Positions 1,758 through 27,172 of a stretch of 64,000 nucleotides of DNA are shown in pieces. The position numbers and the translations under genes are program-made. Below the pieces are notes generated by a model that saw nothing but the letters and a program-made list of their open reading frames with translations, was not told where the DNA came from and made no database searches. Every line of letters starts with the position of its first letter. Position 1 is the stretch's first letter. Source of the DNA: Brevundimonas naejangsanensis (GTDB lineage: Bacteria > Pseudomonadota > Alphaproteobacteria > Caulobacterales > Caulobacteraceae); assembly GCF_003627995.1 (NCBI RefSeq), contig NZ_CP032707.1:2284501-2348500 (forward strand). The letters run 5' to 3'.

Positions 1758-1945
1758 ACGCGCAGGGATGACCGGTCGCGGCGGCGAAGTCGAGGGCCGC
1801 GGATCGTCGGTCCTGCAGGCCTGCGCGGCCGGGCGAGGCTGAAGCGTCATAGCGGGCGCCGCACCGGAACCTTACGGGGGGAGACGGGCAGGGGGCCAGG
1901 GCAGGATAGGCTTTGCGCCGGCATTGTCTGACAGGGCCATCCTCC
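1758..1945 (+). other. non-coding stretch before mobC, candidate oriT region
   Basis: This 188-nt gap lies directly upstream of the MobC-like and relaxase genes, where oriT is often found in elements of this kind. It contains several G-rich and palindromic patches (for example GGTCCTGCAGGCC near 1810). I cannot point to a recognised nic sequence, so this is a location-based suggestion only. Confidence 0.22.
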
Positions 1946-3504: not shown

Positions 3505-3607
3505 GGCCGCCATCTGATCTGGGCGGAGACCGCCGCGTCCGTTCGGCCGATCGGAAGCAGATAGGGTCGTTCCGGGGTCCGTCAGGGCGCGGCCCTGAAA
3601 TGCGGCC

Positions 3608-9954: not shown

Positions 9955-9955
9955 G

Positions 9956-11622: not shown

Positions 11623-13994
11623 GAGGCTCTCCTTCGGGCATGGAAATGATCGCGCCACTGCGCATAGCCGTCGCCGGTCTCCCCCCGGATCCGGTCGAGG
11701 AGGGCCACGGTCGCGGCCCGGCCGGAGAGGACGGCGAGGACATCGTCCATTCCCGTCAGATCCAGCTCGACCACCACGCTGTCGTGGCCCTGTTTGACCA
11801 GGAAACGACGGGACTCCGGCGTCAGGACATCGCGGACAAGGTGGAACTCCGTTCCGGTCAGTCCGAAGCCGTCCACATAGTCGCGGGCCTGGCCATGGGG
11901 GTTGGGCAGGAAGATCTTGGTCGCGCACTGCTCCAGGATGGCGTGGGCGATCGGCGAACGGAGAGCGTCGGCGGGCGACTGGGTGCCGAACACCATCATG
12001 GCGTTCTGCTTGCGCCAGGTCTTCAGTCCGTCCCGCGCCAGATCGGTGAAGGCCGGGTCGTCCAGCACCTTCCAGAACTCGTCTATGTCCAGCACCAGTC
12101 GGCGGCCGTCCACACGCTCGGTGATGCGGTGGAAGAGATAGAGCATGGCCGGGGTCCGGACCTCGTCGTGGTCGAGAATCCGGGTGATGTCGAAGCCGGA
12201 GAGGGGGGCGTCCAGGCTCAGCACGTCCTCGTCATTGTCGAGGACCCAGCCGAGGGGGCCGCCGGCCTGCCAGCGTTCCAGCCTTGCGCCTATCCCACCG
12301 GCGTCGCCCTGGCCGAGCAGGCTCCTCAGCGCGCCGATGGACCTTCGTTCGCGCGGCAGGGCCTCCAGCGCCGCGACCCCGTGATCGATGGCCCGCGCCT
12401 GGGCGACCGTCAGGGTTTCGTCCGGCCGGCTCACGAGGGCCCGGACCAGCCTGACGAGGAAGGCGCGGCTGGAGGGCGTGGGAGGCAGGGCCCTGAATGG
12501 CGCGAAGCCGGTCGGCTCTCCATTGTCCAGCGTCAGATAGGTTCCGCCGCAGGCCCGCACGAAGATCTCCGCGCCGCGGTCCTTGTCGATGAAGATCCGT
12601 TCGGCGCCGAACCGCTCGAGCCGGGCGAGCATGAAGTTCTGGACGACCGTCTTGCCTGAGCCCGACGGGCCGCAGATGAAGGTGTGGCCGAGATCACCGA
12701 CATGGAAGCTGAAGTGGAAGGGAGAGCCCGCCGTGGTCCGCAGGACAGCCAGGGCGGGGCCCCAGTGGTTGCCTGTCGCCCTGCCGGCCGGACAGGCGTG
12801 GAAGGGCGCCAGGGCGGCGAAGTTGCGCGATGTGATTGCCGCCGGTCGGGTCCGCCGGGCGAAGGCCCCGGGAAACTGCGCCCAGAAGGCGGCCTCGAGC
12901 CCCAGATCCTCGCGCGCGACCACCATGCCGGAATCCGCGAGGATGGCGCGGGCTCTCGACAGGTGATCGGCCAGGTCTGCCGGAGTGTCGCCATGAACGA
13001 GGACGGAAGCCTGGTGTTCGCCCATGACGAAACGGTTGCTCACCAGCTCGTCCAGCGCCTCCGACAGTCCGGCGATCTGGGAAGAGGCCCGGTCCCGCGC
13101 CGAGACCATCTGGTTCTGCTTGCGCTCCATCACTTTCCGGGCCGAGGCTCCGGACAGGAAGGCGAAGGAATGGGTCGCCACGAAGCCGAAGGGGGCGGAA
13201 AGCAGCCCGTTCCAGAGTCCCGGCCGCGTCGTGGCCGGATAGTCCTTGATGGCCAGAACCCCTGCATAGCGGGTCTCGGCGGCGTCCCTGATCTCGAGGG
13301 TTTCCCGGCCGAAGATCACCCGCGCCCTGTATGCCGAGGAACCCAGATGGCCGTGCACCAGGGGGGAGGGCGTGCTCCGGCCGTTCAGGATGAGCCCGAT
13401 CATCTCCATGGGCTCCGAGAACCAGATCCCGTCACGCTCATGCAGGCCGAGACGGCGCGGCGTGTAGCGGTCCAGGTAGCGGGCGAGGTCGCGCCCTGCT
13501 TCCTCGAGACGACGGAGCGGGCGGGCCCCGGCCTCGGGGTCCCGGCGGCGCCCTTGGCGCAGCCGCCGCATCAGCGCGGCCGGGCGGTCGGAAGGGGCGC
13601 GGCCGGGATGCAGGACAAGGGTGACGAACAGCTCGTTGAGCCAGAGCGGTCGCGAGGCGGTCAGGGCGTCATGGCCGGCGCCGAGCTCGGCGGCGAAGGC
13701 GGATCTGAAGCCGGTGGAGGGCGGGGCCTCGACCTGTCGCCGGACGACATGATGCCAGATCGCGAGCTGTTCGTCGGCCAGGTTGCGCCAGGCCTGGTTA
13801 AGCTTGAGGTGCCAGTCGTTGAGATCGCGGACGTCAGCCGTCTCGTAGCTGGCGCCCTGGATCTGGAACGCCAGCATGAGGGCGCCGCTGTCCAGGGCGA
13901 TGACATGGTCGTTGACATGCCGCGCATAGGGCAGGTGCGGCCGGACTTCGGTTTCCCGCCCGAGCCGGCCCTGGCTGATCCGCGCCTCAGCCAC
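11619..13994 (-). CDS. virB4: type IV secretion ATPase VirB4/TrbE
   Basis: The 791-residue product has the N-terminal VirB4 domain (LPYARHVNDHVIALDSGALMLAFQIQG, a strong family hallmark) and a C-terminal ATPase. Walker A GPSGSGKTV is at about 441-449 and a Walker B-like LVLDIDEFWKVLDD comes later. The AMMVFGTQSPADAL motif III and a final HFHARRRAS are also present. VirB4 energises pilus assembly and substrate transfer. The start lies 8 bases before the virB3 end. Length and motifs are complete. Confidence 0.95.
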   Translation of the reverse strand: MAEARISQGRLGRETEVRPHLPYARHVNDHVIALDSGALMLAFQIQGASYETADVRDLNDWHLKLNQAWRNLADEQLAIWHHVVRRQVEAPPSTGFRSAFAAELGAGHDALTASRPLWLNELFVTLVLHPGRAPSDRPAALMRRLRQGRRRDPEAGARPLRRLEEAGRDLARYLDRYTPRRLGLHERDGIWFSEPMEMIGLILNGRSTPSPLVHGHLGSSAYRARVIFGRETLEIRDAAETRYAGVLAIKDYPATTRPGLWNGLLSAPFGFVATHSFAFLSGASARKVMERKQNQMVSARDRASSQIAGLSEALDELVSNRFVMGEHQASVLVHGDTPADLADHLSRARAILADSGMVVAREDLGLEAAFWAQFPGAFARRTRPAAITSRNFAALAPFHACPAGRATGNHWGPALAVLRTTAGSPFHFSFHVGDLGHTFICGPSGSGKTVVQNFMLARLERFGAERIFIDKDRGAEIFVRACGGTYLTLDNGEPTGFAPFRALPPTPSSRAFLVRLVRALVSRPDETLTVAQARAIDHGVAALEALPRERRSIGALRSLLGQGDAGGIGARLERWQAGGPLGWVLDNDEDVLSLDAPLSGFDITRILDHDEVRTPAMLYLFHRITERVDGRRLVLDIDEFWKVLDDPAFTDLARDGLKTWRKQNAMMVFGTQSPADALRSPIAHAILEQCATKIFLPNPHGQARDYVDGFGLTGTEFHLVRDVLTPESRRFLVKQGHDSVVVELDLTGMDDVLAVLSGRAATVALLDRIRGETGDGYAQWRDHFHARRRAS

Positions 13995-14322
13995 GGGTCA
14001 ACTCCGCGGCGCGGTAACGATGGACGAGGGGCAGGGGCGAGGGCGAACTTCCGCCCCAGAGCGCCGTGTTGCGCGCCCGGCCCCGGGTGTCGAGGTGAAG
14101 AAACAGGATGCGGAAGGCGTTGTGATCGGCGCGGCAGATGGCGCGGAACACCATGTGCAGGGCCGGGGCAGCCAGCAGATAGGCCAGGCTGCCGCCGATC
14201 AGGAAGACCAGCCCCGAAAGGATGACATTGACCCCCATGGCTTCCATGGGCACGCCCATCACCATGGCGGGCCGGGTGCACGCCAGGAAGAGCGGATCCT
14301 CCACGATACGTTCCTCAGCCAT
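13987..14322 (-). CDS. virB3: type IV secretion protein VirB3
   Basis: The 111-residue inner-membrane protein contains DPLFLACTRPAMVMGVPMEAMGVNVILSG, the family signature (xPLfxgxTRPaxxxGVP), one long membrane region (about 29-55) and HMVFRAICRADHNAFRILFLHLDTR. It lies directly in front of virB4 with an 8-base overlap. It is needed for pilus assembly with VirB4. Confidence 0.93.
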   Translation of the reverse strand: MAEERIVEDPLFLACTRPAMVMGVPMEAMGVNVILSGLVFLIGGSLAYLLAAPALHMVFRAICRADHNAFRILFLHLDTRGRARNTALWGGSSPSPLPLVHRYRAAELTRG

Positions 14323-14497
14323 GCCCGCCCCCGGAAAGAAGCCGGGCCGCGGTCATGACCAACAGAAGGCCGCACCCCAGGCCCCCGACGATCTGGACGA
14401 AACGCACGGGCGAGATCAGCCGCCGCCCCAGCGCCAGCCCGAGGGCGAAGGCTGTCGCCGGCGCCGCCAGGGCGAGGATGCACGCGCCCGGGCTCAC
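14315..14497 (-). CDS. small two-helix membrane protein between virB2 and virB3 (60 aa)
   Basis: A GTG at 14497 overlaps the virB2 stop (GTGA), and the frame ends 8 bases inside virB3. It encodes 60 residues with two hydrophobic segments (ACILALAAPATAFALGLALG and VQIVGGLGCGLLLVMTAARLL) separated by a basic loop. Tight overlap on both sides shows it is part of the operon. I know no named VirB subunit at this place; it may be a second small pilin-like or assembly factor, or an element-specific extra. Confidence 0.65.
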   Translation of the reverse strand: MSPGACILALAAPATAFALGLALGRRLISPVRFVQIVGGLGCGLLLVMTAARLLSGGGHG

Positions 14498-14799
14498 CGC
14501 GCGCCGCCGGTGATCAGGTTGACGATCTCGGCGGCGCCGAAGACCACGATGATGCCCAGAACGACTATGGCGGCGCGTCGCAGGTCGAACAGGCCGAACA
14601 TCCAGAGGATGCCGACGACGACCACGGCCAGCACCGCGAGCAGGCGCGCTGTGTTGCCCGTGAGCATGTCGACGACGTTCTGGAGCAGGCCCTCGACATT
14701 GGCCGAGGCGAAGGCGGGCTCGACCAGCAGGAGGCTGGCGGCGCCGGCGATCAGGACGGCGGCGCAGAGCAGCCGCGGGCTTGAGGCATGACCGGTCAT
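14494..14799 (-). CDS. virB2: major pilin VirB2/TrbC
   Basis: The ATG at 14799 lies in the virB1 stop overlap (ATGA) and gives 101 residues. There is a long signal peptide ending VEPAFAS, followed by two hydrophobic helices separated by a short basic loop (ARLLAVLAVVVVGILWMFG, then LRRAAIVVLGIIVVFGAAEIV). This is the normal VirB2 prepilin architecture. VirB2 polymerises into the conjugative pilus. Confidence 0.9.
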   Translation of the reverse strand: MTGHASSPRLLCAAVLIAGAASLLLVEPAFASANVEGLLQNVVDMLTGNTARLLAVLAVVVVGILWMFGLFDLRRAAIVVLGIIVVFGAAEIVNLITGGAR

Positions 14800-15410
14800 C
14801 TCTGACCTCCCCGTGCACTGTGGGTGGATGTGAAGACGAGGGACGGGGAGGCTGGCGCCCGTCCGAAGACGTCCCAGGCGGCGACCGGACCGGAAGGTTC
14901 GACGGTCGCCGGCGGATCCTGCCGGTCCGCGTCTCCAGCCGGAGCGAGCCCAAGGGCGGCGGCGGCGGCCTCCACCCTCGCCACATAGCCATTGCGAAAG
15001 CCCCGCTCCGGATGGCCCGTATTGTAGCGGGACAGGGCTATCCGCAGGGTCTGCTGCGGGGTCCGGTCCGGCCCTGGCCTGTAACCGGCGCGCAGGATCC
15101 TGTCCGCGGCCGCGAGGTTGCTGCAGGGATCGAAGGCCGCTTCCGGGCTCAGGCCGAGGCGGTCCAGGTTGTCGCTGTTGATCTGGGCCACGCCGAGGTC
15201 GAGGTTGGCGCCGCGCGCCAGCAGGTCGCGAGCGATCCGGGCGGCGTCGGCCGCGTCGCGCGGAGGTCGCGCCGGGCGCGGTCCGCGGTTGACCCCGATG
15301 GCGAGCGGATCGAAGCGGCTCTCTGCCCAGGCGACGGCGGCCAGGGTCGCGGGCGCTGTCTGCGGGGCGCAGGTCTGGGCCAGGATCAGTATGGCGGCGA
15401 GGTCCAGCAA
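14796..15410 (-). CDS. virB1: lytic transglycosylase VirB1
   Basis: The 204-residue product has a short hydrophobic N-terminus (MLDLAAILILAQTCAP). The SLT-type catalytic core follows: AAVAWAESRFDPLAIGVN contains the catalytic Glu of the A-x-E-S motif, then LDLGVAQINSDNL (GxxQIN) and DPCSNLAAADRILRAGY. It opens the peptidoglycan for channel assembly. The C-terminal 50 residues are proline-rich and disordered. It is the first structural gene of the virB operon. Confidence 0.93.
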   Translation of the reverse strand: MLDLAAILILAQTCAPQTAPATLAAVAWAESRFDPLAIGVNRGPRPARPPRDAADAARIARDLLARGANLDLGVAQINSDNLDRLGLSPEAAFDPCSNLAAADRILRAGYRPGPDRTPQQTLRIALSRYNTGHPERGFRNGYVARVEAAAAALGLAPAGDADRQDPPATVEPSGPVAAWDVFGRAPASPSLVFTSTHSARGGQR

Positions 15411-15790: not shown

Positions 15791-16297
15791 TTACGGAGCC
15801 TGATCGGGCGGCCGGTCGTCCTCTCCGTCCAGGTCGGGCGGAACCAGCCTTTCGAGCCTCTGCCTGAGCCAGGCCCTGGCGGCGTCGTCGCGGCGGACCG
15901 CCTGGAGCGCCAGCTCCCTGAACGCCCGCGTCACCGTGTTGATGATGGTGCGGCTGTCCAGTTCGGCGATCCCGTCGCCCATTTCCTCGTCCAGGGCGTG
16001 CAGGGCGACGACGAGAATCTCTCCCAGCTTGTTGTCCGCGGCCCGCAGGGCGAACTCCGGCGAGCCCAGGGCCAGGGCGGTGAGGATGGCGTACGGGTCG
16101 GAATCCGTCACCCGGGCGAAGCGATGGATGCGTTCGTGATGGATCTTGCCCTTGCCGGCCTCGAACAGCTCATAGGTTCTCAGCCGCATCCCCATGGCGT
16201 CCGCGACCTCGATGGTGCGCATCCGGCGATGGGCGCGGATCAGGCGAAGCGACGCTGAAAGCGTCGCGCTCTGGGATTGGCGTTTCTCCGGGCCCAT
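15791..16297 (-). CDS. XRE-family transcriptional regulator
   Basis: I choose the ATG at 16297 because GGGAGAGA precedes it; the frame is open further to 16378. The 168-residue protein has an N-terminal helix-turn-helix (SASLRLIRAHRRMRTIEVADAMGMRLRTYELFEAGKG). A C-terminal helical part contains LGEILVVALHALDEEMGDGIAEL. It is divergent from the GntR-type gene and shares a 190-nt AT-richer intergenic region with it. Genes of this shape often control conjugative or accessory modules, but the target here is not known. Confidence 0.78.
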   Translation of the reverse strand: MGPEKRQSQSATLSASLRLIRAHRRMRTIEVADAMGMRLRTYELFEAGKGKIHHERIHRFARVTDSDPYAILTALALGSPEFALRAADNKLGEILVVALHALDEEMGDGIAELDSRTIINTVTRAFRELALQAVRRDDAARAWLRQRLERLVPPDLDGEDDRPPDQAP

Positions 16298-16422
16298 GGA
16301 CCGTCTCTCTCCCGCTGGCGAGGCAGGCGGATCGAGCCGCCCGCGCGCCTGCCAGTTGAAAAATGGAACAATGCTCATTCAAATGAAAGTCAGGAAAAAA
16401 ACGGGCTCCATAAACTTGCGGG

Positions 16423-16455
16423 GCGACGAAAATAACGTGCGGTTATTGATGTCGC
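16423..16455. promoter_or_regulatory. imperfect palindrome between XRE and GntR genes, candidate operator
   Basis: A 33-nt element reads GCGAC-GAA-AATAAC, a 5-nt centre GTGCG, then GTTATT-GAT-GTCGC. Eleven of fourteen arm positions pair, with the inner six perfect. It lies 36 bases upstream of the GntR-type start. Autoregulation by that protein or by the divergent XRE protein is inferred. Confidence 0.5.
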
Positions 16456-16490
16456 CGTTGCCTATGTATTCATCAGGACGGGAGAAGGCG

Positions 16491-17102
16491 ATGAAGTCGC
16501 GCGATCCCTATCATCAGGCGCTCACGGCCCTGGCGGGGTTTGCAGGCGAGGGGCGGTTCGGTCCGGGCATGCCCCTGGTCATCACGAGCCTTGCCGGGGA
16601 GCTGGGATTGAGCCCCACGCCTGTCCGGGAAGCCCTCGCGAGGCTTGCCGGAGAGGGGGTGATAGAGCACTGGCCCGGGCGCGGCTATTTCGCTCCGGGT
16701 CTGGCGGCGAGCGACATCGTCGAGCTCTATGACTATCACCAGCGCCTTGTTTTATGGGCGGTCGACCTGCCTGTCATCGCCTCGAACGCGCTGCCCCTGC
16801 CTCTGGCGGACACCTGGTCGCGGCGCCTGGAACAGGTTTTCGCCCGCGCGGTTTCAGGCGCCGGAAACAGGGTTCTGGCCGGGGCCTTCCGTCTGGCGGC
16901 GGCCCGGCTGCGTCCCGTCCGAGCGGTGGAGGCGACGATCGCTCCTGTACCGCCCTCCCAGGTCGAGCGTCTCGAGGGGCTCCTCGGGGAGGTTGCCGGA
17001 GACGGCTTCCGGGAGGCTGTCAGCCATTATCACCAGGGCAGGATTGAGGCGGCGGAAAGCATAGCTGCCGCCATGAGGCGTGGTGTTGAAAGTATAGATT
17101 GA
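16491..17102 (+). CDS. GntR-family transcriptional regulator
   Basis: The ATG at 16491, preceded by GGGAGAAGG, gives 203 residues. The N-terminal winged helix is clear: MPLVITSLAGELGLSPTPVREALARLAGEGVIEHWPGRGYF, the standard GntR/FadR motif (S-x-x-P-V-R-E-A-L-x-x-L). The C-terminal part is helical and could be a reduced FCD-type effector domain. The gene ends 79 bases before the lasso precursor on the same strand and is the nearest regulator, so control of the lasso operon is a reasonable inference. Its stop codon lies inside an inverted repeat. Confidence 0.82.
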   Translation: MKSRDPYHQALTALAGFAGEGRFGPGMPLVITSLAGELGLSPTPVREALARLAGEGVIEHWPGRGYFAPGLAASDIVELYDYHQRLVLWAVDLPVIASNALPLPLADTWSRRLEQVFARAVSGAGNRVLAGAFRLAAARLRPVRAVEATIAPVPPSQVERLEGLLGEVAGDGFREAVSHYHQGRIEAAESIAAAMRRGVESID

Positions 17103-17181: not shown

Positions 17182-17418
17182 ATGTTGAAGACCCTCTCCG
17201 GCCTGATCCGTCTCGGATCGGCCGCCGTCGAGACCCGCGCCGAGGATGAATTCGGCAAGTCCGAGCTCAATCCCGTCTATCGCTATGACGACCTCGGCGT
17301 CCGCGCCGATGTCGTCCCTCTCGGCGCCGCCGGGAAACAGACGCGGGCTGACTCCATCGAAGGCCACCTCGAGCTCATCCCGGTCCAGCGCTGGGAAATG
17401 ACCGGCGCGAGCCGCTGA
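17182..17418 (+). CDS. lasso peptide precursor with two apparent leader-core cassettes
   Basis: The 78-residue product follows a perfect AGGAGG. Residues 8-19 (LIRLGSAAVETR) match the leader end of astexin-type precursors, which as I recall have a LGxASxETR ending with Thr at -2. A first core would start at Ala20 with Glu28 at ring position 9 and end near Asp43 (DDLGVRAD, like the tails of astexins). Residues 47-55 (LGAAGKQTR) then repeat the leader end, and a second core would run from Ala56 to Arg78, again with Glu at position 9 (Glu64). The two units align without gaps as LG-A---TRA----G--EL-PV-R. The B and C genes follow. That both cores are matured is inference. Confidence 0.85.
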   Translation: MLKTLSGLIRLGSAAVETRAEDEFGKSELNPVYRYDDLGVRADVVPLGAAGKQTRADSIEGHLELIPVQRWEMTGASR

Positions 17419-17474: not shown

Positions 17475-18113
17475 ATGACCCCTGTGTTGAAGGCGGGTGT
17501 TCACGCCGCCGCGGTGGGCGACGCCCTGATCCTGCTGGACCTGGTCGGGGACGGCTATCTCTGCCTGCCAGGCGCGGGCGCCGCGACAACAGTGACGGAG
17601 GATGGCGCTGTCGAGGTGACGGACGCCGCGACCGCGGAGGTTCTTCGGCAGGCCGGCCTTCTGGGGGCGAGGCCAGTTTCGCCGCCTGCGCCCTTGCCGG
17701 GCAGGCCTTCTGCGACGGTCATCCATGATCCGCCAGGACGCCGGCCCGATCCGGCGATGTGGCTCCAGGGACTTGAAGCAGCGCTGGCTGTGCGGAGGGG
17801 CCGCAAGCGGGGCGGGGTGAGCGATTATCTGGCTCTGGCGGGCCCCCGGGGCGGCGACCGGAGCCCGGGCCGCGTCGTCGAGGCGGCGCGCGCCTTCTGG
17901 CGCATGGCGCCCTGGTTGCCGATCGAGGGCGAATGCCTGGTCAGATCGGCCCTTCTGATGCGTTTCCTCTCACGCCGTGGTCTGGAGGCTGACTGGGTCT
18001 TCGGCGTCCGGCTATGGCCCTTCATGGCGCACTGCTGGGTGCAGCTCGACGAGCTCTGTCTCAATGACGATGTCGAACGCCTTGCCGCCTATACCCCGAT
18101 CTACTGCCGATGA
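17475..18113 (+). CDS. lasso peptide leader peptidase (B protein: RRE plus transglutaminase-like protease)
   Basis: The 212-residue protein has an N-terminal PqqD-like recognition element (about 1-70, VGDALILLDLVGDGYLCLPG). A C-terminal transglutaminase-like cysteine protease domain follows: Cys in EGECLVRSALLMRFL (about 155), His in PFMAHCWVQLDE, and the Asp in LNDDVERL near the end. It binds the leader, removes it after the Thr(-2) site and hands the core to the cyclase. The two functions are fused, as in most proteobacterial clusters. Its stop overlaps the cyclase start (ATGA). Two leader-like sites in the precursor would require two cleavages. Confidence 0.93.
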   Translation: MTPVLKAGVHAAAVGDALILLDLVGDGYLCLPGAGAATTVTEDGAVEVTDAATAEVLRQAGLLGARPVSPPAPLPGRPSATVIHDPPGRRPDPAMWLQGLEAALAVRRGRKRGGVSDYLALAGPRGGDRSPGRVVEAARAFWRMAPWLPIEGECLVRSALLMRFLSRRGLEADWVFGVRLWPFMAHCWVQLDELCLNDDVERLAAYTPIYCR

Positions 18114-19858
18114 AACCGTCAGATCACGGCTATATGGTCATCCACTCCGGCGGGTCGGGCCCGGCGGATCGGGCTGTTCTCGCAGCCGGACGAAGGGGCC
18201 TTGAAAGGGCAGGCTGGCGCTCCGCCCTGGCAATTGACGACATTGAGGTTTTCGTCGGGCCGCTTCGGGCGCCCAGGGTTCGCCAGGTCCATCTTCGCTG
18301 CATTCTGATCGGCGACTATCGGCCTCACCGCCAGGCCTTGTCCGCCCTGATCGGCGGCAGTCGCAGCGCTCGCCAGCTTGCCCGGGCGGCTGTCGGCGGA
18401 GGATGGGGGCGCTACGTTCTGATCTGGCGTACCGACGCGGGCGAGCTCGCCGTGCTTCGCGATCCGGGAGGGGCGGTCGACTGTCTCGTCTGGAGCCGTG
18501 GCGGATTAAGACTGGCTGCGGACCAGCCGCCGCCCGAGGCGGACGTCCTTCTTCCCGATGACCTGGCCATCGACTGGGAGCGCCTCGGCGAGATAGCCGG
18601 CCAGCCGGGGCTGGCGAGCGACCAGCCGCCGCTGCTCGGCCTGACCGCGGTCGCGCCGGGAGAGTATGCGCTGTTGAAAGGCGGTCCTGTTCGTGAGGCG
18701 GTGTGGACCCCGGCCGATATCTGGAGGACGCGCCGCTCCGATCCCTCGCCGGAGGCCCTCCGGTCTGTGGTGGATGCGGCGGTGGCGGCCGAGACCGAAG
18801 GCTATGAACGCCTGGTCGGGGAGATGTCCGGCGGCCTGGACTCCGCTGTCGTCTCCAGCAGCCTCGCCGCGAGCGGCGAAGCAGGGAGAGTCAGTTTCGT
18901 CAACTACTACGGGGATTGGGCCGAGGGAGATGAACGCGCCTATGCCGAGGCGAACGCCCGCTTGAGCGGACTGTCGCTCGAGGTCGTGAGAAAGCCTGTC
19001 GCCCCCATCACGCCCGCGCTCCTGGAGCCTCTCGGGCAGGGCCTGCGCCCGGCGCTGCACGGGGTTGACGCTGCCTATGATCGTGACATGGCGGACCGGC
19101 TGACGGCGGCCGGAGCCACGGGACTTCTGACCGGCCAGGGCGGGGATGCGGTCTTCTTCCAGGCGCCCGACCCCCGCGTGGCTGTCGATCGCCGCCGGCG
19201 ACGGGGCTGGAAAGGATTTGAACCGGCCTACTGGGCCGAGGTCGGTCGATGGACGCGGCATTCAGCATGGACAGTCGCCGGGCTGGCGCTGGCGCCCCGG
19301 CGCGCCGTTTCGGGGAAGGGCCGACGTCACCCCTGGCTGGAGGATTGCGACGATCTTCCGCCGGGCAAGCGCGGCCAGATCCTTCGTCTGGCGAATTGTC
19401 AGCTGTTCCGCGGGGACTGTCTGCGGGCGAGAGCGGCTGATCTCATACATCCGCTGCTCAGCCAGCCCGTCATGGAGCATGTTCTGGCCGTGCCGTCGGA
19501 TCTGCTGCTGGCCGGGGTCCGGGATCGCGGGCTTGCGCGTCTGGCCTTCGCTGATCGCCTTCCTGAGATGATCACCGGGCGACGGGACAAGGGCGATCTC
19601 AGCGCCTTCTATGGCCATGTAGTTCTGTCGAGCCTGCCGGAGCTGCGTCCCTTCCTTCAGGAGGGCAGGCTGGCGGAGCGCGGCATTCTGGATCGGGACA
19701 GTCTCGGTCGCGACCTCGAACCTGACAGGCTCATGTGGGCCGCTGACGGCAATCGGCCCCTCTTGCTGGCGGTGCTGGAGACCTGGGCACGCCAATGGGA
19801 AGATCGGATAGGCCGGCGGAGGATGGAGGCGGAACCAGATACGCTCCATGGAGCGTAG
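18110..19858 (+). CDS. lasso peptide macrolactam synthetase (C protein, asparagine-synthase-like)
   Basis: The 582-residue protein resembles asparagine synthetase B. It has an N-terminal glutaminase-like fold without the catalytic N-terminal Cys, and the ATP-pyrophosphatase loop SGGLDS is at about residues 240-245 (VGEMSGGLDSAVVSSSLA). LTGQGGDAVFF follows at about 343. It adenylates the ring carboxylate (position 9 Glu here) and closes the isopeptide bond with the N-terminal amine. Gene order precursor-B-C is standard. No ABC exporter gene follows; the next gene is convergent. Confidence 0.94.
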   Translation: MKPSDHGYMVIHSGGSGPADRAVLAAGRRGLERAGWRSALAIDDIEVFVGPLRAPRVRQVHLRCILIGDYRPHRQALSALIGGSRSARQLARAAVGGGWGRYVLIWRTDAGELAVLRDPGGAVDCLVWSRGGLRLAADQPPPEADVLLPDDLAIDWERLGEIAGQPGLASDQPPLLGLTAVAPGEYALLKGGPVREAVWTPADIWRTRRSDPSPEALRSVVDAAVAAETEGYERLVGEMSGGLDSAVVSSSLAASGEAGRVSFVNYYGDWAEGDERAYAEANARLSGLSLEVVRKPVAPITPALLEPLGQGLRPALHGVDAAYDRDMADRLTAAGATGLLTGQGGDAVFFQAPDPRVAVDRRRRRGWKGFEPAYWAEVGRWTRHSAWTVAGLALAPRRAVSGKGRRHPWLEDCDDLPPGKRGQILRLANCQLFRGDCLRARAADLIHPLLSQPVMEHVLAVPSDLLLAGVRDRGLARLAFADRLPEMITGRRDKGDLSAFYGHVVLSSLPELRPFLQEGRLAERGILDRDSLGRDLEPDRLMWAADGNRPLLLAVLETWARQWEDRIGRRRMEAEPDTLHGA

Positions 19859-19883: not shown

Positions 19884-20801
19884 TCAGTTTTCGGAATAGA
19901 GGGCGGCGAGGAGCTTCCGAAGCTCGGCTTCACGTCGCTCCGGGTCGAGCGCGGCGAGCTTCTGCATGCGGAACTGCACGGCCGGCAGGTCGGCCACATG
20001 CGTCGGGCCGAGCAGGGACCAGTCAGGCTCTCCGCGCTTGAACGAGATGAGGAACCGGCGATGTTCCTCGGGCATGTCGCCGACCATGATCGCAATGAGC
20101 TTCTCGCGGACATCGAGCAGCGTCCGGAGGGGCGTGTCGTCGGCAGTCATCCCGACGAATTCCTGATCGTATTTCTGGACCAGATCGCGCCGGCGAGGGG
20201 CGAGGATCGTGTTCAGCGCCCTGGCGCTGCTGAGCAGGTAGGCGATGAAGGCCTGGCGGAGATCATCACTGACTCCTTCGTTCTCGAGCAGCAGCTTGAC
20301 GTCATAGAGATCGCGGGGGTGCTGGCGATCGAGCGCGGCCACGATCTTGCCGGCGTAGAGATCCGGCTGTGAAACCACCCAGGTTTCAGCGAAGCCGTAT
20401 TTCTCCTCCACCGCGTCCGTGACGCGCATGAGCGCGGGTTCGTAGACCACGCCGCGCATCACGGGGGTGACCTCGATCTTGATCGCGGCGCCGGCCTGGA
20501 CGTTGAGGCGTTCGATATAACCTTCGGCAGAGCGTTGCGCCGCAACCTGGGCGCCCCGGATGCTCGTCATGATATTGCCGGTGATCCGGGTGAGACCTGC
20601 TTCAATTCCCCGGATGGCCTCTTCCCAGGGTTGGATGGGCAGGTAGGTGAGGTCGAGATCGACCGACAGGCGTGGGAAATCCCTTACGAACAGATTGATC
20701 GCCGTGCCTCCCTTGAGGGCGAAATCCCTTTCCTCGGCCAGAACCGGCAGGATGCGCACCAGGAGGGCGACCTGCCGTTCATAGGTCTCACGCGGGGCCA
20801 T
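19884..20801 (-). CDS. AbiEii/AbiGii-family nucleotidyltransferase toxin
   Basis: The 305-residue protein has the nucleotidyltransferase signature FALKGGTAINLFVRDFPRLSVDLDLTYLP near residues 27-55 (GG-x-A and the D-x-D pair). The AbiEii pattern follows, including DLYAGKIVAALDRQHPRDLYDVKLLLE. AbiE toxins are GTP-dependent nucleotidyltransferases of type IV toxin-antitoxin systems and abort phage infection. It overlaps the cognate antitoxin gene by 14 bases. It is convergent with the lasso cyclase, 25 bases away, and separates the lasso genes from the isopeptidase operon. Confidence 0.92.
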   Translation of the reverse strand: MAPRETYERQVALLVRILPVLAEERDFALKGGTAINLFVRDFPRLSVDLDLTYLPIQPWEEAIRGIEAGLTRITGNIMTSIRGAQVAAQRSAEGYIERLNVQAGAAIKIEVTPVMRGVVYEPALMRVTDAVEEKYGFAETWVVSQPDLYAGKIVAALDRQHPRDLYDVKLLLENEGVSDDLRQAFIAYLLSSARALNTILAPRRRDLVQKYDQEFVGMTADDTPLRTLLDVREKLIAIMVGDMPEEHRRFLISFKRGEPDWSLLGPTHVADLPAVQFRMQKLAALDPERREAELRKLLAALYSEN

Positions 20802-21645
20802 CGAGATCCTCCGGCACCGTGATCATGAACTGCGGATCGAGTTTTCCGCCCTCGACCAGCACACGCTTGCCCGAGCCGAGATCGAAGGTCTGCGGATCGA
20901 GGTGCTTCAGCCAGCGATGATTGTGCCGGAAGGCGAAGAAGAAGAAGAGGCGCTTCACCTTGATGCTCCTGCAGTCATGCAGAAGCCTGGTCAGCCGGCG
21001 CGGGCTGAGCGTCGCCAGTCCCTCCATCATCTTGTCCACCTGGTGGAAGCTCTCCTTCTTCGGAAGCTGGTCCAGCATTTCCAGAATGGCGCGCTCGGGC
21101 GTCGAGACCGTCAGCGGCCATTCAAAATGGCCCCAGGGGATCTGTTTCGTGCTTCCGTGGATCGGGTCATTGCTGCCGCCCCTGTTGTCCATGACGTGCC
21201 AGGCGAGGCTCGTCAGTCCAGTCGTGGCAGGCTCGTTGCGAAACAGCCTCTGGCTGTTGTGGTAGGAAAAGCGAACGCCGAGGTTCAGCTTCCCTACCCA
21301 CCTTGGCAAGGGTTCGGGGCCATACAGATGCACCTCCCGAACGTCAGCAGAGAGGTAGTGGCTGAATCCCTGGAGCTCCAGGGCGGTTCTTCCTCCCACC
21401 AGGAAGGCCTGGTTGAGGATGGTCTGCAGGGAAATCACCACCTGTTCCCAGCCCAGGACGCCGCGTGGCCGCCGGTAGACGCTGCGCGCCGGCTGTTCCA
21501 GCCAGCCTGCGGAGACGTACTGGCTCCGCAGCGCCGAGGAATAGCCATGCTCGTTCATCCACGTCGAGTCGACCAGCAACCCTTCCGGGAGGCGGGATAT
21601 GAGCTGGTTCAGCTTTCCTTCAACTTGCATAGTCATGCTTAGCAT
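20788..21645 (-). CDS. AbiEi-family antitoxin
   Basis: The 285-residue protein has a winged-helix N-terminus (INQLISRLPEGLLVDSTWMNEHGYSSALRSQYVSAGWLEQPARSVYRRP region). The AbiEi C-terminal pattern follows, with GGRTALELQGFSHYL, VSTPERAILEMLDQLP and a basic KVKRLFFFFAFRHNHRW segment. The antitoxin represses its own promoter in this family; the sequence upstream of 21645 is AT-rich. Three Met codons within the first six residues leave the exact start open. It is followed directly by the toxin gene. Confidence 0.88.
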   Translation of the reverse strand: MLSMTMQVEGKLNQLISRLPEGLLVDSTWMNEHGYSSALRSQYVSAGWLEQPARSVYRRPRGVLGWEQVVISLQTILNQAFLVGGRTALELQGFSHYLSADVREVHLYGPEPLPRWVGKLNLGVRFSYHNSQRLFRNEPATTGLTSLAWHVMDNRGGSNDPIHGSTKQIPWGHFEWPLTVSTPERAILEMLDQLPKKESFHQVDKMMEGLATLSPRRLTRLLHDCRSIKVKRLFFFFAFRHNHRWLKHLDPQTFDLGSGKRVLVEGGKLDPQFMITVPEDLDGPA

Positions 21646-21800: not shown

Positions 21801-24218
21801 TTAGCGGACCGGGGCGAGCTCGCGGTCATCCGGATGGGGGGCGAGATATCGGTCAAGCCATTCGAGGATCCTGGCGTGCAGGTCCCTTAGATTGCCCGGG
21901 CTGAAGTAGGTGTGGCCTTCGCCGTAATAGGTCACGAGACCCGCTTCCCGGTTCTGACGATAGAGAGAGCTGAACAGGGCGCCCATGCGTGGCGTGTCGA
22001 GGTCGGATTCGATCAGCAGGGCTGGAGTGCGGATCCTCTCGACCTGGTAGAGGGGGCTGGCCTCGACATAGGCCCGGGGCATCGCCGCGAAATCGCCGAT
22101 CGACGCCTGACCTGTCTCTCCCCAGCCGATCATCTGCCCGACAGGAACGCCTTCCTCGGGCGCGACACGAAAGAACGGCGGAAGCTGCATTGACAGGCTG
22201 AGATCCGGATAGCCGTTCGAGGCTATGACCGCGCTGAAGCGGTCGCTCTGGGCGACGGCGCTGAGAACCCCGTAGCCGCCGAAGCTGTGACCGATGAGGG
22301 CGATGCGCTGCGGGTCGACGAACCCCAGCTCGCCGGCGGCGTCGACAGCGGCCAGGATCCGGTCCGCGATCCCGGCGGCGGGACGGCTTTCACCGGGAGC
22401 CATGGGAAGGCTGACGACGAGGACGGCATAGCCCGCGGCGGCGATCACTGCGGGATTGTTCTGCAGACGGGCCCCGCCGGGCATAAGGGCGGCGGGCGCG
22501 GTGCGCGGCGCGGATCCCGGGTAGACCTCGACGACCACAGGGGGAGGGACTTCCGGCTCGGGACCCGGAGGCAGAAGAAGCCAGCTCGTGAGGTGCTGGC
22601 CGTCCGGACCCCGGTGCGGCACGGCGACGATGCGTCCCCAGTCTATATCGCGCCATCCGGCGTTGACCTCGGCCAGGAGCGTGACGCCTTCCATCGTTCT
22701 CAGGAGGACCCCGCCCGTTCCCTGGTCCAGGCGACGCCTGGTCACGAGGAAGTCGGCGTTCGGGCTGACGGCGAGGATGGTTTCGTCCCCTGCAAAAGGG
22801 GGCAGGCAGGCGGGTTCAGGCTTTCGAAGGTACGACAGGCAGGTCTGGTCGACCAGGGTGCGGGCGCCCAGGACGAGAGGAGAAGGATTCCATCGTGCAG
22901 GATTGCCCAGGTCGACGCTTTCGCCCTGGTCGCGAAGCTGGCCACGCGCCAGCAGCGGTCCTCCGGGTGCGAGGCTGTAGACGCCGTCGGCGCGCTGGAC
23001 GGCCGCCCGCCCGTTGAGTTGTACGATGCGCTCGTTCGGCTCCTTCACCGGTACGGGGCGTCGGCCGGATGCGTCGGGTGTCGCCCAGACGCGGTCCCCT
23101 TCGGCGGTCCTTGCCTGGACAAGCGGCCGGGCGCCGTCCCAGCTCGCCAGGGCAACGGCGACGCCATCCCAGGTGCGCTGGATCCATGGCTTCATCCGGC
23201 CGAGATCCAGCGCCCGGGAACGTCCCCCGGGCGACACCGTCCAGAAGCGGCCGTCATCGTCGAAGTCGCCGCCCGGAGGGCGACCGAAGACGATCAGTTC
23301 GCTGGAATCTGGCGACCATGTCATCAGATACATGGCCAGATCCTGGTCGGGCAGGGGACTGAGCACGGCGCCTGTGTCGAGGGCGACGAGGCGGAGACGC
23401 CGCCGCCGGTAAGGATCGCCGACCCGGACCAGGCGATCCGGCCGGGGCTGCAGATCCTCGGCGTCTTCCAGCAGGGCGGCGTGACGGCCGTCTGGCGAGA
23501 GCCGAAGATCGAACCACTCCCCACGGGCCAGAAGCCGCGGCGTTCCGGTGAGAACGTCGAGGGCGACGAGGGTCGAGGGTTCGACGGTGGTCCGGGACTG
23601 GCGGCTCTGACCGCTGGGGATGTAGACGGCGCTGGAGCCGTGGCCGCTTGCGGCCGTACGCCACAACCTCTCCACCCTCTGCTGAACCTTGAACCCGACC
23701 CGCATTGAAACGGGCGGATCGTGGCGTGGCCGGGCGATGAAGATGAGTTCCGTCGCCGAGCGCCAGGCGACCGTCTGGCCGAACTGGATCATCTCCGGAG
23801 TGAACGGCGTCCAGATCGTCTCCCCGGTCGCAAGCGTGAGGACGCCGAGCTGCAGGTCGTCGGCCGTCACGCGAAAGACGGCCATGCGGGCGCCGTCCGG
23901 TGAAAAGGGACCGCTGATATAGCCGGCCTCCTGGCTGACGGCGGCCAGCCGGATCGGCGCCCCGGTCCGGTCTACGCGGTGAAGCTCGAGATCGCTCAGG
24001 AGGGCGCCGGTCATGGTGGCCAGGGCGTAGGTTCCCGCCTGGTCGTACGGGCGCTGGCGCTCGATCGCGACCCACTTTCCGTCCGGACTGATCCGGGTCG
24101 TTCCCACATCCTCGTGGCGAAGCAGGTCGTTGATCGTGAAGGGACGCGGCGTCTGGGCGCCGGCCGGCCATGCGGCCGTTGTCGCCAGCAGAAGGGCAAG
24201 TATCGCGCGCCGCATCAC
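21801..24218 (-). CDS. lasso peptide isopeptidase (AtxE2-like serine hydrolase)
   Basis: The 805-residue secreted protein begins with a signal peptide (MMRRAILALLLATTAAWPAGAQ). It then has a beta-propeller-like region (repeated SPDGxxxA/I motifs) and a C-terminal prolyl-oligopeptidase-type hydrolase. The triad candidates are Ser645 in GHSFGGYG, Asp739 or Asp741 in ESDLDTPRMG, and His769 in GEGHTYF. AtxE-type isopeptidases cut the macrolactam bond of their own lasso peptide in the periplasm. Its linkage with a TonB receptor and FecI/FecR is known for such clusters. Start and stop overlap the receptor gene by 4 bases. It should act on one or both cores of the nearby precursor. Confidence 0.9.
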   Translation of the reverse strand: MMRRAILALLLATTAAWPAGAQTPRPFTINDLLRHEDVGTTRISPDGKWVAIERQRPYDQAGTYALATMTGALLSDLELHRVDRTGAPIRLAAVSQEAGYISGPFSPDGARMAVFRVTADDLQLGVLTLATGETIWTPFTPEMIQFGQTVAWRSATELIFIARPRHDPPVSMRVGFKVQQRVERLWRTAASGHGSSAVYIPSGQSRQSRTTVEPSTLVALDVLTGTPRLLARGEWFDLRLSPDGRHAALLEDAEDLQPRPDRLVRVGDPYRRRRLRLVALDTGAVLSPLPDQDLAMYLMTWSPDSSELIVFGRPPGGDFDDDGRFWTVSPGGRSRALDLGRMKPWIQRTWDGVAVALASWDGARPLVQARTAEGDRVWATPDASGRRPVPVKEPNERIVQLNGRAAVQRADGVYSLAPGGPLLARGQLRDQGESVDLGNPARWNPSPLVLGARTLVDQTCLSYLRKPEPACLPPFAGDETILAVSPNADFLVTRRRLDQGTGGVLLRTMEGVTLLAEVNAGWRDIDWGRIVAVPHRGPDGQHLTSWLLLPPGPEPEVPPPVVVEVYPGSAPRTAPAALMPGGARLQNNPAVIAAAGYAVLVVSLPMAPGESRPAAGIADRILAAVDAAGELGFVDPQRIALIGHSFGGYGVLSAVAQSDRFSAVIASNGYPDLSLSMQLPPFFRVAPEEGVPVGQMIGWGETGQASIGDFAAMPRAYVEASPLYQVERIRTPALLIESDLDTPRMGALFSSLYRQNREAGLVTYYGEGHTYFSPGNLRDLHARILEWLDRYLAPHPDDRELAPVR

Positions 24219-27172
24219 CAGGCCCTGGTCAGTTGCAGGGAGACGAAGCGCCCGAGCACATTGGCGTTGGCGGGATCATAGGCCACGCCCTCGGGCGCAT
24301 CGTAGAAGGGCGGGTCGCGATCGAACAGGTTCTGCACCGTGACGGTGAGGCCGGTTCCCGCCAGAAGGCCGTGGTCGGGCGTGTACCGGACCGCGAGGTC
24401 GGCCGTCGTCCAGGAGCCGATGCGTTTGCCCGTCAGATCGCGGTAGGCGTCGACGTAGTTGACCGAGGGCGATACCGACCAGGGACCGCGCGCCCATGAG
24501 CCCGAAGCCCGGCCACGCAGGCCGACCGGAAAGTTGGGCCGGTCAAGCTGGGAGACCGTCGGCGAGGTCGGCGTCGGCCGGGCGTCGAACCGCTCGAGCC
24601 AGGTCAGGTTGACACCGAAATCAAGGGCGTCCTGCCCACGGGCGAAGCCATAGTCGACATTGAGATCCGCGCCCTGGACCTGCACGCTCGCCGTATTGAC
24701 GTAGCGGGCGTCGACGATGGCTCCGTAGGAGGAGGCGGGAAACTGGTCGCGCAGGGCGGTCGTCGGCAGGTCGAGGATGGCCTGGATCGCCGCGAGATCC
24801 TTGCTGTCGGCGGGGTTCAACATCCTGACGAAGGGCGCAAGGGAAGGATCGCCCAGCGCGGTCAGGATGCTCTCCAGGGCTGGCTGGCCGATCCGGTTCT
24901 CGAAATCGGTCCGGAAGCCGTTCACCCCGATGCGCAGGCCGGGAAGAGCGGCTGGACGAACCTCGAGGCCGAGCGTCCAGGTGTCGGCTTCCTCCGGCTG
25001 CAGGTCCGGGTTGCCGCCATAGAGGATCATGGAGAGGATCTGCTGCGAGCCGCGCGGGAGAATGGACGGGCTGGCGCTAGGGGTTTCGTTGACCTCCCGC
25101 AGGGCCGGGGCCCGGAAGGACCGGCCGTAGTTCGCCTTGAGGCGCAGCGTCCCGACGGGATCCCAGACGACCCCGACCTTGGGGCTGGTGGTCTGGCCGA
25201 CATCGCCATAGTCCTCGAACCGCGCCGCGAGCGAGAGCTCGAGACGCTCGAGGCCCGGACGGCGGTTGGTTGCGCCGAAGACAGGAACGCGGACTTCCCC
25301 GAAGGCTGCGGCCACATGCCGGTCGGTCTCTGCCGGCGCGCCGACGGTCGGGGCGACGCCGCTGGTGAAGCCCGTAAACTGCCGCTCGAAGGTCTCGTTA
25401 CGGAAGGAGAGCCCCGCCGCGAGGCGGAGCGGGCCGCCCGGGGCTTCCATCAGTGTCCCGGAAACCTGGAGGTTGGCCGAGGCGACGCCCGTCCGGTTAT
25501 GGGTCCGGGAGTAGCCCGAGCTGATGAAGTCGAGCACGGCGCGCGTGTTCACCGCCCCGTCGCCAAAGGGATTGAGGTAGCCGTCGCGGGAGGGACTGTA
25601 GGGGGTGGCGGGATTGTCGGCGATCGCTCCCAGCGCCTCGCGAAGATAGGTGGACTGGAGCGTTCCGGAGGAACCGGTCCTGCTTTCCTCGGACGCCCAG
25701 GCGACATAGGCGTCGATCCGCCAGTCGGAGGAAAGGTCGAACGCGCCGCCCAGGCTGGCGCCGATGCTCTCGACCTCGCCGGTGATGCGCGGCGGCGCGA
25801 TTTCATTCTGGAAGGAGTAGGCGATCGTGTGGGAGCGGGCTCCGGTCGGGGAGACGAACCAGGGGTTGGCGCTGGTCACCGTCAACAGGGTGTTGAGTGG
25901 GAAGGAGACGGTCTCGTAGTTCCGTTTTCCGTACCGGGCGTCGGCCGTGACCTCGAGACGATCGCCGAAGGCCTGGCGCCAGAGGGCGTAGGCGCCGTGA
26001 CGGGTCTGCCGCGGAAGGACATTGATGTGGGCGCGCTGGTTCTCGAGGTTGACCTTTCCGGGCAGAAAATCGCCGGGCTGCAGGCCCGCGCCCGATTGAC
26101 CGGTCGGAATGGCCCAGGCCGGAAGATAGCCGCCGGACGCAGGATCGAAGACGACGATGTTGCCCGGATTGCTGTAGAATTGGCGTCGGTCGCTGCCCCC
26201 GCGCCATCTGAGGTCGGAATCGCTGGCCAGACGCCGGTGCGTCCCGGACAGGGCCTCCCGATCGTAATATTCATAGGAGACCAGGGCGTTCCCGCTGCTC
26301 CAGCGGCGGCCCAGGGTCTGGCCGAACTGATATTCCCCGCTCGCCCCGTCGCTGGTGTTTCCGACCCGGATGCGGCTTTCCGCGCCCTCGTAGTCGTCTC
26401 TCAGGATGATGTTGACGACGCCGCCCACGGCGTCGGCGCCATAGAGGGCGGAGGCGCCGTCGAGGAGAACATCGACCCGCCTGATCGCGGCTGCCGGTAT
26501 GGTCGAGACATCTGCGAAATCGCCCTTTGCGCCCGTGCCCGCCATGCGACGGCCATTGACCAGGACGAGGGTGGCGTCGCTGCCCAGTCCCCGCAGGTTC
26601 ACGCCGTTGGCGAAGGTGGTGTTGGTTCCTGACCGGTCCCCGCCATTGTTCACCGCGCCCTCATTGGCGCTCCCGCCGAAATTCTGCGGCAGGGCGGCCA
26701 GGAGCTGGGCCACGGTGGCGCGCCCCTCGCGGTCCATCCTGTCCCGGTCGATGCTGATGACGGGCGAGGGGCCGTCGCCCACGCCGCGGATCAGGCTGCC
26801 CGTGACGATGACGTCGTCCACGACGGTGAATTCGTCATCGATCAGGCCGGCGCGCGCCCCCGGGTCGAAGAGGACGTAGACGTTCTGGCGGGATTTGCGG
26901 AACGCCAGACCGGTGTCGCGCAGCAGCTCGGCCAGGCCCGCTTCCGCGCTGTAATCGCCCTGCAGTCCGGGGGATGTCCGGCCTTCCACCAGCGCTGCTG
27001 GATAGAGGATCTGGAGGCGGCTCTGTTCGATGAAGACGTCCAGCGTCCGCGCGAGCGGGCCGGCGGGCGCATCATAACGCCTTACGGCGTCCGCGCCCTG
27101 CGCCCAGGCCGGCGCGGCGCAGGCGAGAAGTACGGTTGAAAGTGCTGTCGTCGTCCCAAGGTCGATGCGCAT
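24215..27172 (-). CDS. TonB-dependent receptor with N-terminal signalling (STN) domain
   Basis: The 985-residue outer-membrane receptor has a signal peptide ending APAWA. A secretin/TonB short N-terminal signalling domain (about 30-105, including LARTLDVFIEQSRLQILYPAALVEG and LLRDTGLAFRKSRQNVYVL) comes next. The plug starts with DDVIVTGSLIRG, and the barrel ends in a terminal aromatic-rich strand (GRFVSLQLTRAW). The STN domain means it signals to the FecR protein encoded upstream. In lasso clusters such receptors import the peptide or its products. The Trp at the very C-terminus is the usual outer-membrane sorting end. Confidence 0.93.
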   Translation of the reverse strand: MRIDLGTTTALSTVLLACAAPAWAQGADAVRRYDAPAGPLARTLDVFIEQSRLQILYPAALVEGRTSPGLQGDYSAEAGLAELLRDTGLAFRKSRQNVYVLFDPGARAGLIDDEFTVVDDVIVTGSLIRGVGDGPSPVISIDRDRMDREGRATVAQLLAALPQNFGGSANEGAVNNGGDRSGTNTTFANGVNLRGLGSDATLVLVNGRRMAGTGAKGDFADVSTIPAAAIRRVDVLLDGASALYGADAVGGVVNIILRDDYEGAESRIRVGNTSDGASGEYQFGQTLGRRWSSGNALVSYEYYDREALSGTHRRLASDSDLRWRGGSDRRQFYSNPGNIVVFDPASGGYLPAWAIPTGQSGAGLQPGDFLPGKVNLENQRAHINVLPRQTRHGAYALWRQAFGDRLEVTADARYGKRNYETVSFPLNTLLTVTSANPWFVSPTGARSHTIAYSFQNEIAPPRITGEVESIGASLGGAFDLSSDWRIDAYVAWASEESRTGSSGTLQSTYLREALGAIADNPATPYSPSRDGYLNPFGDGAVNTRAVLDFISSGYSRTHNRTGVASANLQVSGTLMEAPGGPLRLAAGLSFRNETFERQFTGFTSGVAPTVGAPAETDRHVAAAFGEVRVPVFGATNRRPGLERLELSLAARFEDYGDVGQTTSPKVGVVWDPVGTLRLKANYGRSFRAPALREVNETPSASPSILPRGSQQILSMILYGGNPDLQPEEADTWTLGLEVRPAALPGLRIGVNGFRTDFENRIGQPALESILTALGDPSLAPFVRMLNPADSKDLAAIQAILDLPTTALRDQFPASSYGAIVDARYVNTASVQVQGADLNVDYGFARGQDALDFGVNLTWLERFDARPTPTSPTVSQLDRPNFPVGLRGRASGSWARGPWSVSPSVNYVDAYRDLTGKRIGSWTTADLAVRYTPDHGLLAGTGLTVTVQNLFDRDPPFYDAPEGVAYDPANANVLGRFVSLQLTRAW

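What the first reader, a model, noticed from the sequence alone, without database searches (positions are those of the whole stretch)
17182..17418. Lasso precursor with two leader-core cassettes in one polypeptide
The precursor contains two gap-free copies of a unit LG-(S/A)-A-x-x-x-T-R-A-x8-E-L-x-P-V-x-R-(Y/W)-(D/E): residues 11-37 and 47-73. In both, Thr is at -2, Ala would be residue 1 and Glu residue 9, the classic ring geometry. The first copy has an astexin-like leader end and a tail end like DxLGxxAD. Known lasso precursors nearly always carry one core, so a tandem-core, possibly two-product precursor processed by one B/C pair would be unusual. It may also be one core with a very long tail.
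Basis: partly seen in the sequence, partly recalled or inferred. Interest (0 to 1): 0.88.

Follow-up and report, generated by a model that had tools for sequence, protein, structure and literature searches.

The report
Tandem-core lasso peptide precursor family
This Brevundimonas gene encodes one small protein carrying two complete units for making knot-shaped lasso peptides; relatives carry two or three, and the arrangement looks like a fusion of two neighbouring single-peptide genes, so one chain probably yields several different lasso peptides.

Summary
In detail: the 78-residue ORF (17182-17418) carries two leader-core cassettes in register, each with Thr-2, Ala1 and Glu9 (self-similarity reached in 0 of 5,000 shuffles). 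I found tandem precursors in 21 of 131 Brevundimonas genomes and one genome of another genus, and in many database proteins; seven of these 22 loci encode three cassettes. In 51 distinct precursors (105 cassettes) Glu9 is kept in 104 and an aromatic residue 16 in 105. All 22 genomic loci have lasso B and C genes alongside. Their B proteins form one clade (97/97, with two precursor-less B genes); its nearest relatives encode two separate single-core genes, the first with Tyr/Phe16 and the second with Trp16. The tandem protein keeps that order, so it is best read as a fused gene pair related to caulonodins VI/VII. Most likely one B/C pair cuts and cyclises each cassette, giving two or three lassos per chain; trimming of core 1's tail is inferred. 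No product was measured. I found no report of a natural tandem-core lasso precursor, but most subscription papers could not be searched.

The parts
17182..17418 (+). Tandem-core lasso precursor A, 78 aa, two leader-core cassettes
17182..17238 (+). Leader 1 (residues 1-19, ends ...LGSAAVETR)
   Evidence: aligned on Thr-2 with other leaders
17239..17292 (+). Core 1 (residues 20-37, AEDEFGKSELNPVYRYDD; ring A20-E28, aromatic Y35 at core position 16). The C-terminal end is inferred
17293..17346 (+). Linker plus internal leader 2 (residues 38-55, ...VPLGAAGKQTR)
   Evidence: register of internal leaders; constrained as peptide
17347..17415 (+). Core 2 (residues 56-78, ADSIEGHLELIPVQRWEMTGASR; ring A56-E64, aromatic W71 at core position 16)
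17475..18113 (+). Lasso B: N-terminal domain resembling a leader-recognition element (RRE) plus transglutaminase-like Cys protease
18110..19858 (+). Lasso C: asparagine-synthetase-like macrolactam cyclase
   Evidence: PF00733 72.3 bits, cut-off 21; SGGLDS loop read in the sequence
16491..17102 (+). GntR-family regulator (start codon chosen by eye; conserved neighbour)
   Evidence: PF00392 43.9 bits (on the longer ORF 16194-17102)
15791..16378 (-). Conserved small protein, regulator-like by eye (conserved neighbour; no Pfam match over its cut-off)
21801..24218 (-). S9 peptidase, likely lasso isopeptidase
   Evidence: PF00326; NF033523 lasso_peptidase 93.6 bits, below its cut-off of 400
24215..27172 (-). 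TonB-dependent receptor, likely lasso uptake
   Evidence: PF00593, PF07715, PF07660

Best explanation
The gene is a tandem-core lasso precursor that arose by fusion of two adjacent single-core precursor genes related to the caulonodin VI (Tyr16) and VII (Trp16) pair. One B/C pair matures both cassettes. The N-terminal domain of B engages each leader (position -12 to Thr-2), B cuts after Arg19 and after Arg55, and C joins Ala1 to Glu9 in each core, giving two lasso peptides per chain (three in some relatives). The residual linker on lasso 1 is probably trimmed back to near the aromatic lock by general carboxypeptidases. Shown here: architecture, conservation, gene context and phylogeny. Inferred: both cleavages, both ring closures, threading and trimming.
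For: 51 distinct full-length precursors all carry at least two cassettes (48 with two, 3 with three); residue 9 is Glu in 104 of 105 cassettes and residue 16 is Tyr or Trp in 105 of 105, neither of which was used to pick the cassettes. Internal leaders keep Val/Ile/Leu/Met at -12 in 51 of 54 (Ala in 3), Leu-9 in 52 of 54 (Ile in 2) and Ala-6 in 54 of 54. Thr-to-Thr spacing is 36, 35, 34 or 32; the missing residues lie upstream of position -12 in the one aligned row with a gap there and, by eye, in P0025, P0026 and P0029. pN/pS: core 1 0.30, linker/leader 2 0.29, core 2 0.39. The B proteins of all 22 tandem loci form one clade (24 rows with two B genes lacking a found precursor, 97/97); next come L049/L050 (94/82) and then 19 loci (94/93), all with separate genes. 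Order of residue 16: first gene Y (19) or F (2), second gene W in 21 of 21 parsed gene-pair loci; intact tandem loci first Y in 21 of 21, last W in 18 of 21. L206 encodes a core identical to caulonodin VI and one nearly identical to caulonodin VII (Table 1 of PMC12427821, passage). The JACS 2026 review says C-terminal fusions to astexin-1 and pandonodin are tolerated and that endogenous carboxypeptidases truncate tails (PMC13352647, passage).
Against: No mass or enzyme data. The profile search behind most of the 51 sequences favours two-cassette proteins and scored only the 8,000 candidates sharing most words, so they are not an unbiased sample. One database precursor (P0009) has Lys at position 9 of cassette 2, and in three tandem loci (L052-L054) the last core has Tyr16, not Trp16. 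Leader 1 is the least constrained segment (pN/pS 0.67). The branches that place the gene-pair loci next to the tandem clade are good but not top-supported (94/82 and 94/93; 88 and 88 in the larger quick tree). The RRE call rests on sub-threshold sequence matches (E 0.16 and 0.23), no Foldseek match at 0.001 or better and middling Z (5.3). The review also says tail extensions typically lower product formation (PMC13352647).
Confidence: 0.82

Rival explanations
1. Two cuts by B but no full trimming: lasso 1 is released as A20-R55 and keeps the internal leader as its threaded tail, while lasso 2 is A56-R78. (This is a variant of the best explanation, not exclusive of two products; its odds overlap with those above.)
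For: B is the only leader peptidase seen in the cluster. The linker is under purifying selection (pN/pS 0.29) and ends at the B cut site.
Against: Tails are known to be shortened by endogenous carboxypeptidases (PMC13352647 passage). The constraint on the linker is already explained by its leader role.
Confidence: 0.25
2. One lasso with a very long tail: only the first cassette is cut and cyclised, and the second cassette is an unprocessed tail or folding aid.
For: C-terminal fusions are compatible with lasso formation in astexin-1 and pandonodin (PMC13352647 passage). One relative has lost Glu9 in cassette 2 (P0009).
Against: Cassette 2 keeps Glu9 and aromatic 16 in nearly all relatives, its counterpart is a separate precursor gene in sister loci, and three-cassette forms occur.
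Confidence: 0.07
3. Only the second cassette is productive; the first is a decayed or regulatory leader-like segment.
For: Core 2 ends at the natural stop, as in ordinary precursors.
Against: Core 1 is under purifying selection at least as strong as core 2 (pN/pS 0.30 against 0.39) and keeps Glu9 in 51 of 51 first cassettes; the only non-Glu9 is a second cassette.
Confidence: 0.05
4. The second cassette is made from an internal translation start, so the ORF is really two overlapping precursors.
For: 17 of 21 tandem loci have some in-frame ATG or GTG between the first core's start and a later Thr-2; two (L041, L042) have a GGAG upstream of one.
Against: In the window and in L033, L037 and L038 there is no in-frame ATG, GTG or TTG there. 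By contrast, in the true gene pair of L019 an AGGAG lies just before the second ATG.
Confidence: 0.03

Closest known systems
Caulonodins VI and VII (Caulobacter sp. K31)
   Same: Two lasso peptides from one cluster; Ala/Ser1 with Glu9; Arg15 with Tyr16 in the first and Trp16 in the second (positions counted from the sequences in PMC12427821 Table 1, passage). The first core of L206 is identical to caulonodin VI and the second nearly identical to VII. Heterologous yields are given in PMC7549694 (passage).
   Different: Encoded by separate precursors; in L206 two single-core genes. Here the two cassettes are fused in one ORF with an internal leader.
Astexin-1 and Atx-type clusters with isopeptidase and TonB receptor
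   Same: L103 has the leader end LGKASAETR in the same register. That L103 is astexin-1, and that such clusters carry isopeptidase and TonB receptor genes, is recalled.
   Different: Single core starting with Gly.
Caulosegnins I-III
   Same: Several lasso products from one set of enzymes (PMC13352647 passage).
   Different: Three precursor peptides, one product each.
Brevunsin (Brevundimonas diminuta)
   Same: Lasso peptide of the same genus (PMC7549694 passage; sequence in PMC12427821 Table 1, passage).
   Different: Different core family; the look-alikes seen here are single-core genes (by eye, for example L137).
Multi-core RiPP precursors such as the graspetides plesiocin and chryseoviridin, and engineered lasso-graspetide chimeras with two leaders
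   Same: Several cores, or two leaders, in one chain (PMC13003496 passages).
   Different: Other chemistry or man-made; here each core has its own leader and all cores are of the lasso kind.

Membership tests
Lasso peptide biosynthetic cluster | Precursor with Thr at leader position -2 and Asp/Glu at core position 7-9 | tested here: met
   T18/E28 and T54/E64 in the window; Glu9 in 104 of 105 cassettes
Lasso peptide biosynthetic cluster | B2-type leader peptidase | tested here: met
   NF033537 79.1 bits against cut-off 33; Cys154 and His186 invariant, Asp198 at least 90% in 20 aligned B proteins
Lasso peptide biosynthetic cluster | RRE (B1) domain that binds the leader | tested here: inconclusive
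Lasso peptide biosynthetic cluster | Asparagine-synthetase-like cyclase C | tested here: met
   PF00733 72.3 bits, cut-off 21; the lasso-related NCBIfam cyclase models stay below their cut-offs (28.3 of 525; 49 of 300)
Lasso peptide biosynthetic cluster | Threaded lariat product | not testable with these tools
   Needs mass spectrometry and NMR or carboxypeptidase assays
Lasso peptide biosynthetic cluster | One core per precursor (usual, not strictly defining) | tested here: not met
   Two cassettes in the window, three in L035, L036 and L044-L048
Isopeptidase-type (Atx) lasso cluster | Lasso isopeptidase gene nearby | tested here: inconclusive
   S9 peptidase 93.6 bits to NF033523, cut-off 400; a homologue on the opposite strand was found in 21 of 22 loci L033-L054, in L033 about 8.5 kb from B
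Caulonodin VI/VII type precursor | Cores with Ala/Ser1, Glu9 and Tyr16 (first) or Trp16 (second) | tested here: met
   In the window A1, E9, Y16 and A1, E9, W16; over 21 intact tandem loci Tyr16 21 of 21 first, Trp16 18 of 21 last
Caulonodin VI/VII type precursor | Separate precursor genes | tested here: not met
   Single continuous ORF in the window and in the 20 other intact tandem loci

The most novel reading that the evidence does not exclude
A natural class of multi-core lasso precursors: a single B/C pair works repeatedly along one chain, recognising internal leaders that have no free N-terminus, and releases two or three different lasso peptides in fixed ratio. The class arose once by fusion of a Tyr16/Trp16 gene pair, and cassette number later rose from two to three, apparently twice. 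It travels as near-constant cargo of a conjugative element.
Probability: 0.72. Interest if true: 0.77.

Novelty: new variant of a known kind. Interest (0 to 1): 0.71.

Why it matters
Lasso precursors are generally described as one leader plus one core (PMC13352647 and PMC12427821, passages). A natural family with two or three leader-core cassettes, and sister loci that preserve the unfused gene pair, makes it directly testable whether the leader-recognition domain and protease can work on internal leaders, in what order the cassettes mature, and why two lock types (Tyr16 and Trp16) are kept together. It also offers a template for encoding several lasso peptides in one gene. Genome mining that assumes one core could miss or misassign such precursors: neither Pfam nor NCBIfam recognised the window's precursor, and the readable source names of its homologues are 'hypothetical protein'.

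Tried and rejected
Chance similarity: rejected (0 of 5,000 shuffles). Sequencing or assembly artefact: rejected, since 22 genomes and many database proteins show it. Spread beyond the family: of 385 genomes drawn evenly across the class only the window's own matched at E 0.001; no match in 72,556 plasmid records by tblastn.

Survey of B loci. 133 loci were examined; 7 duplicates and 16 with B under 100 bits were left out, leaving 110. The strict pattern called 81 with single-core genes, 15 tandem and 14 without a recognised precursor. Reading by eye moved L037 and L044-L048 from 'none' and the frameshifted L051 from 'single' to tandem, giving 22 tandem, 80 single-core and 8 without a recognised precursor. 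The sample is enriched for tandem loci because 22 of its loci were fetched through the precursor search, and the pattern may miss unusual precursors. In the first B tree two B genes without a found precursor (L156, L160) had been labelled single by default; they are relabelled. L160 lies at a contig end; L156 has no recognisable precursor upstream. In the family search with the profile, 47 of 390 genomes matched; I fetched and read all the full-length matches and 20 of the partial ones, not every partial match.

Full report
OBSERVATION. The ORF at 17182-17418 encodes 78 residues with two copies of a leader-core unit. The best gap-free self-match pairs residues 8-39 with 44-75, 13 of 32 identical, and none of 5,000 shuffles reached its score. 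Core 1 begins at Ala20 with Glu28 as residue 9 and Tyr35 as residue 16; core 2 begins at Ala56 with Glu64 as residue 9 and Trp71 as residue 16.

IT IS A FAMILY. A search of about 5.8 billion proteins with the window's precursor gave nine hits at E 1 or better, all 78 aa and with both cassettes. A profile of ten two-cassette precursors gave 45 proteins, with only the 8,000 best word-sharing candidates scored. In genomes I found tandem precursors in 21 of 131 of the window's genus (23 matched, two of them gene pairs) and in one genome of another genus of the family (G235), 22 of 390 in all. That the genus is Brevundimonas rests on named relatives (P0007; L032). One of the 21, G003, carries a frameshift in leader 1. 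Of 385 genomes drawn across the class only the window's own matched. Seven of the 22 loci encode three cassettes (L035, L036, L044-L048). All 22 have B and C (for 20 of them and the window as query; L111) alongside; the database proteins were not checked for neighbours.

CONSERVATION. I pooled 51 distinct full-length precursors after dropping eight incomplete ones (P0035, P0037, P0040, P0042-P0046). They hold 105 cassettes. The pattern required Gly-8, Thr-2, Arg-1 and Ala/Gly/Ser at residue 1, so those are not evidence. Not required, and therefore informative: Glu9 in 104 of 105, Tyr or Trp at residue 16 in 105 of 105, Ala-6 in 54 of 54 internal leaders, Leu-9 in 52 of 54 (Ile in 2), and Val/Ile/Leu/Met at -12 in 51 of 54 (Ala in 3). 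The one exception at residue 9 is Lys in the second cassette of P0009. The spacing from one Thr-2 to the next is 36 (42 cases), 34 (5), 32 (5) or 35 (2); where residues are missing they lie upstream of position -12 in the one aligned row with a gap there and, by eye, in P0025, P0026 and P0029. Codon comparisons within three groups give pooled pN/pS of 0.30 (core 1), 0.29 (linker with leader 2), 0.39 (core 2) and 0.67 (leader 1); the pairs are not independent.

ORIGIN. Sister loci carry the same kind of cassettes as two separate genes. In L049/L050 the two genes are a few bases apart; in the one read base by base (L019, the same locus as L049) an AGGAG precedes the second ATG. In L187-L205 a Tyr16 gene is followed by a Trp16 gene. 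In 21 gene-pair loci where both genes were parsed (of 22; L189 was not), the first gene has Tyr16 (19) or Phe16 (2) and the second Trp16 (21). In 21 intact tandem loci the first cassette has Tyr16 in 21, the middle ones Tyr16 in 7 of 7, and the last Trp16 in 18 and Tyr16 in 3. In the careful B tree of 61 chosen rows the 22 tandem loci plus two B genes without a found precursor form one clade (97/97), with L049/L050 next (94/82) and the 19 gene-pair loci after that (94/93); the quick tree of 130 rows gives the same order with 97, 88 and 88. The simplest history is one fusion of a Tyr16-Trp16 gene pair, then gain of a second Tyr16 cassette in two separate places on the tree. L206, a gene-pair locus, encodes AGTGVLLPETNQIKRYDPA, identical to caulonodin VI, and SGIGVLFPEPNMVRRWD, close to caulonodin VII, as listed in Table 1 of PMC12427821 (passage). 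Caulonodins VI and VII are known products (PMC7549694 passage). So each half of the tandem protein resembles a kind of core known to mature when encoded alone.

MECHANISM. The best reading is that B recognises each leader, cuts after both TR sites, and C closes Ala1 to Glu9 in each core. That C-terminal fusions can be tolerated during lasso formation, and that tails are trimmed by carboxypeptidases, is stated for other lassos in PMC13352647 (passage; the same passage says extensions typically lower product formation). Internal translation starts do not explain the second cassette in the window, which has no ATG, GTG or TTG between the first core's start and the second Thr-2; 17 of 21 tandem loci do have some such codon, two with a GGAG upstream. 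What remains unknown is which cut comes first, how far the tail of lasso 1 is trimmed, and what the peptides do.

CONTEXT. The cluster lies next to a conjugative system (relaxase, coupling protein, VirB4, VirB8 and others at 1913-15410). Of 43 VirB4 copies found at E = 0 (72% identity or more) in 131 genomes of the genus, 41 lie on the same contig about 3.2-3.5 kb from a precursor of this lineage, tandem or gene pair (coordinates compared by hand); the exceptions are G110:C149, a contig end, and G001:C43. The sister loci L049/L050 have none within the stretch fetched. No integrase lies in the window, so the element's borders are not defined.

NOVELTY. I found no description of a natural tandem-core lasso precursor in ten literature searches (listings) and the passages read from five papers; most subscription papers are not held. 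The enzymes and product class are known; the repeated leader-core architecture and its fusion origin appear new. I rate it a new variant of a known kind.

Noticed in passing
window 1913-15410: A conjugative type IV secretion set with relaxase adjoins the lasso cluster. In 131 genomes of the genus, 41 of 43 close VirB4 copies (E = 0) lie about 3.2-3.5 kb from a lasso precursor of this lineage (compared by hand), so the lasso cluster looks like near-constant cargo of a conjugative element.
   Followed up: partly
window 19884-21645: An AbiE-type toxin-antitoxin pair (PF08843; PF11459, PF17194) sits between C and the isopeptidase gene in the window but was found in 0 of 22 related loci; it looks like a recent insertion.
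   Followed up: partly
L021 / L051 (genome G003): This tandem precursor has a frameshift in leader 1 while cassette 2 reads intact, and its VirB4 homologue is split into several pieces; the element may be decaying or mis-sequenced there. Intact relatives of the precursor exist (P0038, P0039, P0041).
   Followed up: no
L156 (genome G043): A lasso B gene of the tandem clade with no recognisable precursor upstream, followed by a C gene (G043:C3), in a genome that also has a complete tandem locus (L040).
   Followed up: no
L194, L195, L199: Gene-pair loci with a third small precursor-like gene with Gly at residue 1, just upstream of or overlapping the B reading frame; L197 has a similar frame.
   Followed up: no
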